Positions 1 through 1,530 of a DNA stretch of 63,165 nt are shown one piece after another. The stretch is from Cyanobacteria bacterium SW_9_44_58 (GTDB taxonomy: Bacteria; Cyanobacteriota; Cyanobacteriia; Cyanobacteriales; Rubidibacteraceae). The stretch spans positions 1 through 63,165 of the forward strand of contig PXPI01000009.1 in NCBI GenBank assembly GCA_003021905.1, written 5' to 3'. Below the pieces are notes generated by a model. The model saw only the letters and a program-made list of their open reading frames with translations. It was not told the DNA's origin and ran no database searches. Position numbers and translations under genes: made by a program. Within the stretch, counting starts at the first letter, position 1. The number at the start of each line of letters is the position of its first letter.

Positions 1-96
1 AAGGTTAGTGTTCGTTGATGAGGAGCGGTGTGATGGGAAACTATCACGCACCGTTCTGGAGCCGAGTCAGTAGGGCAACCTACTGGCTTAGGTAAC
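1..96 (+). mobile_element. 3' end of a group II intron (domains V and VI)
   Basis: Bases 23-56 fold as a canonical 34-nt domain V. The lower stem is GAGCGGU (23-29) with ACCGUUC (50-56) and contains the AGC catalytic triad. The upper stem is GUGAUGG (30-36) with CUAUCAC (41-47), closed by a GAAA tetraloop, with a 2-nt GC bulge at 48-49. Bases 61-93 form domain VI: CAGUAGG (68-74) pairs with CCUACUG (79-85) across a GCAA loop, and the lower stem has a single unpaired A at position 90. That A lies 7 nt from a 3' end ...GGUAAC at 96, as expected for the branch-point adenosine. The rest of the intron, including any reverse transcriptase, lies outside the window. The next base resumes the DUF29 reading frame, which supports this 3' splice site. 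The folds were read by eye. Confidence 0.88.
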
Positions 97-233
97 TTAG
101 AAAATCGGTTTGAGCAATGTTATCAAGATGGTCGCAAGCTAGCTTCTAAACATGCTCAACTTCCCTTTGAGAGTTTTCCGGAAACGCGATCGCGCCTTTA
201 GATCAACTATTAGATGAAAACTGGCTGCCATAA
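97..233 (+). pseudogene. DUF29 family protein, C-terminal exon, frameshifted
   Basis: Translation from base 100 gives ENRFEQCYQDGRKLA, then LPFESFPET, the usual C-terminal region of cyanobacterial DUF29 proteins (FxECYxDxRxLA...LPxxTFPE). This frame ends at TAG 199-201. Another frame continues to DQLLDENWLP and TAA at 231-233, which matches the standard DUF29 ending. A one-base indel therefore lies around the HIP1 sequence at 184-195. The group II intron ends immediately upstream, so the gene is interrupted by the intron and carries a frameshift. The 5' exon is outside the window. DUF29 proteins have no established function. The frameshift could be a sequencing error. Confidence 0.75.
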
Positions 234-243
234 CAACAACAGG

Positions 244-1530
244 TTAGCTATTGCCGCCGATATCCCCAGTATTAGATCCCACTAACGAAATATAGGGGTC
301 AATTGCCAAATACTTTCTCGCCACAGCTTGGATTTGTTCGCTAGTGACGTTTGCAATACTCTCTTGAAAGAGATCATCAAACTCCACACCTCGGTTAAGC
401 GTTTCATACCAGCCAAATAATTGCGCTAATTGACCGTTACTCTGTTTGCCGAGGGCATATTGCCCTAATAATTTATTTTTACTGGCTTGTAATTCTTCTG
501 CGGTGAGTTCCACTTCACATAGCCGTTTCACTTCCTGACGCAACTCTTGTAAGGCAATCGCCACATTGTCAGGGGCAGTTCCAATATAGGTTACTAATTG
601 CGACGGTTCGAGGCGTGTAGGATAAAAGGCGGAAACATCATAAGCGAGTCCTTGCTTTTCCCGCAATTCCACAAATAACCGCGACGAGAGACCATTTCCG
701 AGATAGGTATTGATTAGTTTCAAAGTTGGGTAATCGGCATCTTGTATGGAAGCAGTGAGATAACCCAACATAATGATAGTTTGTTGCGTATTTTGAGGGA
801 TAGACTGTTGCGAGGGTTGCGGTGTCAGAGAAGGTAAGGAAGGTATGGATTGCGGGGTTGGCGGTTGCTTCCAGTCGCCAAAGACTTTCTCTACTTCCTG
901 AATTCCTTGTTCTAGAGTAATGCGGCCCGCTAAACTGATAACTAATTGATCCGGACGGAAATAAGTGCGATGATAGGCTTCTAGTTCAGTACGGGTTAGC
1001 TGGGAAACCGTTTCTGACGTTCCTAAAACCGATACGCCATAGGGATGCTGAGGATACATTTGTGCCCGCAGTTGATTAAATGCCACATTGAAGGGCTGTT
1101 CTTGTTGGGCGGCAATGGTTTGTAGGGTGAGGGCTTGTTCCAGTTCGATTTCACTTTCGGGAAGGCTTGGGGCGCGCATTAATTCACCCGCTAATTGCAA
1201 CATCTTTGGGAAATCTTCAGAGACGCTTTTGAGACCAATGGTAAAATAGTCGTTCGCACTTTCAGCATTCAAGCCGGCGCCGATGGATTCTACTTTTTCC
1301 GCTATTTCAGCGGCGTTAAGGCTTTCTGTTCCCTTGGCAATAACGGTTGAAAGCAAATGGGAAACACCGGCTTGAGAGAGAGGTTCCACTCGCGTTCCAG
1401 CGTTTTTTAGAAATAATCGGCCAGCAATAATATCAGCCGTGGGATTTTCAATAACAATGAGGGTAATTCCGTTGTCTAAGGTGGTACGTTGAATCGGTTG
1501 GCGCGTCGGACTCGGTTTTAGGGTTTGCAT
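244..1530 (-). CDS. M16 family peptidase-like protein lacking the zinc motif
   Basis: This 428-residue protein has the two-lobed M16 architecture. The N-terminal lobe starts with TTLDNGITLIVIENP and the C-terminal lobe carries LSSRLFVELREKQGLAYDVSAF. The inverted zinc motif HxxEH expected near residue 58 reads HLLST, so the catalytic Glu and second His are absent. Many bacteria encode M16 proteins in pairs, one catalytic and one inactive partner that shapes the chamber; this protein looks like the inactive partner. Its active mate is not in the window. The stop lies only 11 bases from the DUF29 end. It is transcribed after murT on the same strand with a 24-base gap, so the two may be cotranscribed. 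The true peptide substrate is unknown. Confidence 0.85.
   Translation of the reverse strand: MQTLKPSPTRQPIQRTTLDNGITLIVIENPTADIIAGRLFLKNAGTRVEPLSQAGVSHLLSTVIAKGTESLNAAEIAEKVESIGAGLNAESANDYFTIGLKSVSEDFPKMLQLAGELMRAPSLPESEIELEQALTLQTIAAQQEQPFNVAFNQLRAQMYPQHPYGVSVLGTSETVSQLTRTELEAYHRTYFRPDQLVISLAGRITLEQGIQEVEKVFGDWKQPPTPQSIPSLPSLTPQPSQQSIPQNTQQTIIMLGYLTASIQDADYPTLKLINTYLGNGLSSRLFVELREKQGLAYDVSAFYPTRLEPSQLVTYIGTAPDNVAIALQELRQEVKRLCEVELTAEELQASKNKLLGQYALGKQSNGQLAQLFGWYETLNRGVEFDDLFQESIANVTSEQIQAVARKYLAIDPYISLVGSNTGDIGGNS

What the first reader, a model, noticed from the sequence alone, without database searches (positions are those of the whole stretch)
1..233. Group II intron 3' end joined to a DUF29 exon that also has a frameshift
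The 34-nt domain V with AGC triad and GAAA loop, and a domain VI with a single bulged A 7 nt from the 3' end, are read directly. The following codons resume a DUF29 C-terminus, so the intron sits inside a coding gene, not in a typical intergenic or mobile target. A one-base frameshift downstream makes functional splicing less relevant, or is an error.
Basis: partly seen in the sequence, partly recalled or inferred. Interest (0 to 1): 0.62.

Follow-up and report, generated by a model that had tools for sequence, protein, structure and literature searches.

The report
Mobile intron tail in DUF29 gene
The start of this contig is the tail end of one of many copies of a self-splicing mobile intron that has spread through the genome of a cyanobacterium, here landing in a spare copy of a gene of unknown function; it is a known kind of element and mostly ordinary.

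Summary
Window 1-96 is the 3' end of a group II intron: domain V, then domain VI with bulged A90. Rfam RF00029 scores 50.5 bits (cutoff 40), and relatives show compensatory changes. The 3' end is base 96. Bases 97-234 are the last third of a DUF29 gene, 95% identical to an intact paralog (contig C76) but one base shorter, so the frame closes early at 199-201.

Missing context: the window is a whole contig that starts at an assembly break. The same tail occurs at 10 places in this Halothece-like genome, and 19 of 21 group II matches lie within 25 bases of a contig end. Domains I-IV and the DUF29 5' exon are thus outside the window. No 5' exon was found in the assembly, but the paralog's uncut site resembles the target motif of six other copies.

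Insertion into genes is not special to this copy. Of seven copies whose two sides I could pair, four are in sense (three join in frame) and three antisense. One splits a single-copy M3 peptidase that rejoins as in five sister genomes.

Verdict: a real group II intron of a known kind; the DUF29 copy is probably a decaying duplicate.

The parts
1..96 (+). 3' end of a group II intron ('type A'), cut off at the contig start; last intron base is 96 (...GGTAAC)
   Evidence: RF00029 50.5 bits; identical over 1-96 at seven places including this one, plus three copies cut short by their contig ends; flanks differ after 96
22..57 (+). domain V, AGC triad 24-26, GAAA loop 37-40, 2-nt bulge
   Evidence: fold; cmscan; pair counts on 10 relatives
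61..93 (+). domain VI with bulged A at 90 (branch point by inference)
   Evidence: fold; 4 of 14 pairs with changes on both sides
97..234 (+). 3' exon: last third of a DUF29 gene; phase-0 junction by comparison with the C76 paralog
   Evidence: 95% identity to C76:7313-7451 starting at base 97; Pfam DUF29 21.9 bits, cutoff 22.5
181..201 (+). one base shorter than the paralog just ahead of a HIP1 palindrome; the shifted frame stops at 199-201
   Evidence: alignment; translation
244..1530 (-). neighbour, not part of the intron: a 428-aa gene (M16 zinc protease by eye), conserved in five sister genomes without a DUF29 beside it
   Evidence: ORF; relatives; tblastn of the DUF29 paralog against the five sister loci gave no real match; the family name is recalled, not searched

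Best explanation
Window 1-96 is the 3' end of one copy of a recently spread mobile group II intron in a Halothece-like cyanobacterium. It inserted in sense orientation, probably by retrohoming at a site resembling its usual target, into a duplicate of a DUF29 gene. Shown: the domain V/VI anatomy, the 3' end, identical copies elsewhere in the genome, the DUF29 exon, its intact paralog and the frameshift. Inferred: that domains I-IV and a DUF29 5' exon lie on the missing side, that the RNA splices with A90 as branch point, and that a maturase (its own or one supplied in trans) helps. Splicing would join the DUF29 exons in phase, but the one-base loss about 28 codons further on would still change and shorten the C-terminus, so this host copy is probably a decaying spare.
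For: RF00029 above its cutoff and compensatory changes in DV and DVI. Ten copies of the same tail with different flanks. 5' ends starting GTGCG at other contig ends. Full-length relatives in sister genome G003, one of whose proteins has RT, maturase and HNH domains. Homology to the C76 paralog begins at base 97, and the uncut C76 site (...TTTAAAGAATCAT|TTAG) is matched or beaten by 2 of 509 positions in that gene (itself included) and 80 of 126,304 in the window with a motif built from six other 5' exons. Patchy spread: 3 of 6 genomes of the genus have a match to the tail.
Against: No DUF29 5' exon was found: 8 of 10 DUF29 matches cover the whole profile and the two weakest (C48, C119) carry no intron 5' end. 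Six type-A 5' ends were found for ten 3' ends. The body of this intron type is not in the assembly. The target motif is loose and rests on six sites (leave-one-out scores 5.28 to 13.25; C76 site 7.96); EBS pairing could not be tested.
Confidence: 0.85

Rival explanations
1. Recombinant or fragmentary copy: recombination between two intron copies, or a 5'-truncated retrotransposition, put this tail next to the DUF29 3' exon, and no DUF29 5' exon exists on the other side.
For: No DUF29 5' exon found in the assembly. One unpaired type-A 5' end (start of C112) lies 8 bases after the stop codon of another gene, i.e. between genes. A chimeric-looking intron piece occurs on C13.
Against: The paralog homology starts right at the splice junction and the paralog site resembles the target motif, as simple insertion predicts. 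Other type-A 5' ends are missing from the assembly as well, so absence says little.
Confidence: 0.12
2. The DUF29 frameshift is a sequencing or assembly error and the spliced gene is intact. (This can be true together with the best explanation.)
For: Read each in its own frame, most substitutions on both sides of the gap are synonymous (my reading of the alignment).
Against: The gap lies about 85 bases inside unique sequence and not in a long homopolymer. Two of seven other intron-split genes are also one base short at their junctions relative to relatives, so small losses may be real here, though those two lie at contig ends where errors are likelier.
Confidence: 0.25
3. Not an intron: chance hairpins next to a DUF29 pseudogene.
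For: Only the last 96 bases are visible in the window.
Against: Covariance score above cutoff, compensatory changes, repeated copies, and full-length relatives with a group II RT/maturase in a sister genome.
Confidence: 0.01

Closest known systems
Group II introns of Thermosynechococcus elongatus (28 closely related copies; Mohr et al. 2010, PMC2882425, passages seen)
   Same: Many related copies in one unicellular cyanobacterium, several families, some copies inside genes.
   Different: The paper says only a small number lie within genes; here seven copies could be paired in or at the edge of genes, a selected set, not a rate. Mobility was assayed there, not here.
Group II introns of Trichodesmium erythraeum (17 documented to splice in vivo; PMC4649490, passages seen)
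   Same: Group II introns inside protein-coding genes of a cyanobacterium.
   Different: Splicing was shown there by RNA work; here it is inferred from in-frame joins. No search for twintrons was made here.
Introns of sister genome G003 (complete, 3.78 Mb)
   Same: Tails 83-95% identical in the ten copies fetched; same GTGCG 5' end in nine of those ten, 2660-2804 nt long.
   Different: Those nine hold a 625-657 aa open frame (one scanned: RT/maturase with HNH); the body of the window's own type is not available.

Membership tests
Group II intron (RF00029) | domain V with AGC triad and GNRA loop | tested here: met
Group II intron (RF00029) | domain VI with bulged A near the 3' end | tested here: met
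   A90 bulge, position -7; helix supported by changes on both sides
Group II intron (RF00029) | 5' end GUGYG and 3' end AY | tested here: inconclusive
   3' end AAC at 94-96 met; the 5' end GTGCG was seen at other copies only, not at this one
Group II intron (RF00029) | domains I-IV | not testable with these tools
   the contig begins at base 1; the domains were not modelled in relatives either, only intron lengths were measured
Mobile group II intron | intron-encoded reverse transcriptase/maturase | tested here: inconclusive
   not assembled for this type; RVT_1 and GIIM searches find in this genome only an intact copy of another type (C58) and a frame-broken one (C54), plus an RT on C109 without GIIM; present in a G003 relative
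Mobile group II intron | insertion at sites pairing with EBS1/EBS2 | tested here: inconclusive
   shared target motif and paralog site; the EBS loops of this type are not available
Mobile group II intron | multiple near-identical copies at different sites | tested here: met
DUF29 (PF01724) | match to the family profile | tested here: inconclusive
   the 34-aa exon scores 21.9 bits against a 22.5 cutoff; the C76 paralog scores 159.9; exon DNA 95% identical to it
DUF29 (PF01724) | DUF29 5' exon on the far side of the intron (needed for 'inserted in a DUF29 gene') | tested here: inconclusive
   not found in the assembly, which lacks sequence at these repeats

The most novel reading that the evidence does not exclude
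In this unicellular Halothece-like cyanobacterium a family of near-identical group II introns behaves somewhat like spliceosomal introns: it sits inside conserved genes, including a single-copy M3 peptidase split just before its HEFGH motif, and must be removed from the mRNA for the gene to work, perhaps by a shared maturase acting in trans, while antisense and decaying copies such as the DUF29 one show the cost of the expansion.
Probability: 0.4. Interest if true: 0.5.

Novelty: new member of a known kind. Interest (0 to 1): 0.3.

Why it matters
Taken alone the finding is ordinary: one tail of a repeated mobile intron. The genome around it is more useful. The M3 peptidase case (one copy in each of five sister genomes, here present only as two halves that join in frame with no gap at the junction) makes required splicing directly testable in a cyanobacterium other than Trichodesmium. 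It is also a reminder that contig ends in such assemblies can be intron boundaries, so split genes there should not be called pseudogenes without checking.

Tried and rejected
DUF29 5' exon: sought by profile (10 matches; 8 cover the whole profile; the two weakest, C48 at 35.9 and C119 at 29.5 bits, have no intron 5' end) and by DNA of the paralog upstream of the site (5 matches: the paralog and four at 69-71% identity on C86). Not found. I considered the start of C112 as partner of the window: the gene there (a transporter by eye) ends 8 bases before the junction, so it is not a DUF29 exon.

C109 carries an RT gene beside a GTP-cyclohydrolase-like gene (names by eye); it has no GIIM match and no intron 5' end, so I set it aside. 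Plasmid searches gave one weak match for the first 300 bases (Anabaena cylindrica plasmid, 78.4% over 74 bases) and none for 97-1560.

Papers: no held paper has both 'group II intron' and 'Dactylococcopsis'; five have 'DUF29' and 'group II intron', none with a cyanobacterial title; some searches were the other paper searches. I saw passages of three papers and listings of the rest. I make no claim that this is unpublished.

Dropped rows: one row (L036) was given wrong coordinates and three G003 copies (L133, L136, L141) carry an extra T; all four rows were left out of the 10-row alignment, in which the C54 copy was then given correctly as L006. A first pattern for the DUF815 relatives failed and the next caught one of six loci; one search aligned all six. 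The labels isochorismatase-like (C88/C54) and PilT-like (C113) are by eye; Pfam gave no match for those pieces.

Full report
The window is the whole of contig C9 of a 136-contig, 2.94 Mb genome; base 1 is the contig start. The genus is probably Halothece: sister genome G004 has the same gene on a contig of the same length (11,440 bases) as record JAHEOB010000038.1, titled Halothece sp. MAG.

Observation. RF00029 matches 21-147 at 50.5 bits, gathering score 40. The part beyond base 96 is a misalignment into the exon. Folding 20-96 gives domain V (22-57) and domain VI (61-93) with one bulged A at 90; z = -7.8, 0 of 200 shuffles as stable. On an alignment of 10 distinct relatives, 290 of 290 pair cells are standard and 8 of 29 pairs change on both sides, shuffle mean 3.2, 0 of 500 shuffles as high. 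The structure came from the window's own fold, which favours it in the slid-register control, and related sequences can beat shuffles without structure; the Rfam score is the independent support. Three G003 copies with an extra T were left out.

Copies. The own genome has 21 RF00029 matches, a lower bound because 150 of 177 first-look candidates were scored; 19 of the 21 lie within 25 bases of a contig end. The window's tail is identical over all 96 bases at seven places and over 88, 88 and 67 bases at three more that are cut by their contig end (C126, C59, C66): 10 in all. A second type ('B') has 7 copies identical over 76 bases. Flanks differ right after ...GGTAAC, which puts the intron end at base 96. 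My inference is that the assembler collapsed the repeated intron bodies, which are not among the contigs held.

5' ends. Starting from a nearly complete copy on C54 (2457 nt, RT frame broken), the 5' end GTGCGATTCGTTT was found at other contig ends. By the bases that follow, six belong to the window's type (C37 end, C81, C88, C104, both ends of C112). A possible seventh on C13 runs into N.

Host genes. I paired 5' and 3' sides by the protein they encode and got seven pairs. Type A, sense: an M3 peptidase (C104/C117) and a DUF502 protein (C112/C59) join in frame; a third gene (C88/C54) is one base short at the junction against four relatives. Type A, antisense: a methyltransferase (C81/C126) and the 3' end of prephenate dehydratase (C37/C16) join in frame; the second is a weak test, as only two residues lie beyond the junction. 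Type B: an OprB-like porin (C75/C35) joins in frame in sense; a DUF815 gene (C107/C123) is antisense and one base short at the junction against six of six relative loci. So 5 of 7 join in frame and 2 of 7 are one base short. Only M3, C88/C54 and DUF815 were compared with relatives. Pfam supports the names DUF502, OprB, methyltransferase, PDT and DUF815 and M3; the C88/C54 pieces had no match. Other ends were left unpaired, so these seven are a selected set, not a rate.

M3 test. The M3 family occurs once, uninterrupted, in each of five sister genomes. In this genome the only two matches are the halves, profile 1-240 and 239-456. The joined 710-aa reading has 579-595 identical residues over 699-706 aligned with each sister and no gap at the junction, just before HEFGH. 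This is the best evidence that members of this family are spliced; it remains an inference without RNA data.

DUF29 exon. Bases 97-234 are 95% identical to C76:7313-7451, in an intact 154-aa DUF29 gene, and the match starts at base 97. The paralog reads ...AAG AAT CAT | TTA GAA AAT, so the junction is phase 0. A motif from the six type-A 5' exons, C76 not included, gives the paralog site 7.96, reached by 2 of 509 positions in that gene and 80 of 126,304 in the window on both strands; leave-one-out scores of the six were 5.28 to 13.25. The window copy is one base shorter near 181 and its frame stops at 199-201. The 5' exon was not found.

Neighbours and spread. The gene at 244-1530 is conserved in five sister genomes; what lies beyond its 3' end differs among them by eye, and a tblastn of the DUF29 paralog against those five loci gave only one 12-residue match at E 9.9. 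DNA matches to the tail occur in 3 of 6 genomes of the genus: 21 in this one, 20 in G003 and 4 in G002. Of ten G003 copies fetched, nine had a readable 5' end, a length of 2660-2804 nt and an open frame of 625-657 aa. The one protein scanned (L132) has RVT_N, RVT_1, GIIM and HNH domains and passes the group II RT/maturase model. In the own genome only C58 (another type, intact) and C54 (broken) carry both RT and GIIM matches, so whether type A encodes its own maturase is open.

Literature (passages only). T. elongatus has 28 related copies, only a small number within genes (PMC2882425). [quoted passage not shown] Cyanobacteriota range from none to more than 100 group II introns per genome (PMC8919778). 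The finding fits this picture.

Conclusion. The element is of a known kind, and the frameshifted DUF29 copy is most likely a spare gene in decay. The part worth following is the genome-wide pattern, above all the split M3 peptidase.

Noticed in passing
contigs C104 (L054) and C117 (L011): Single-copy M3 peptidase split by a type-A intron just before its HEFGH motif; the halves join in frame, with no gap at the junction against five sister genomes.
   Followed up: yes
L091/L013 (C88/C54) and L041/L016 (C107/C123): Two intron-split genes are one base short at the insertion junction, against four relatives and six of six relative loci. Real loss, a target-site change or a contig-end error was not decided.
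   Followed up: partly
L033 (C54:225-2681, minus strand): A nearly complete 2457-nt intron whose reverse transcriptase frame is broken near a short extra stretch in the RT domain.
   Followed up: partly
L038 (contig C13), about 1374-1700: A tRNA-Thr gene followed within about 12 bases by an intron 5' end, a run of N, a piece of intron and a piece resembling prephenate dehydratase: a remnant or a scaffolding artefact.
   Followed up: partly
L133, L136, L141 (sister genome G003): Three introns end ...TTAGGTTAAC with one extra T relative to the other fetched copies.
   Followed up: no
G000:C86 and other contigs: DUF29 is a multi-copy family here: four matches on C86 and six on other contigs.
   Followed up: no
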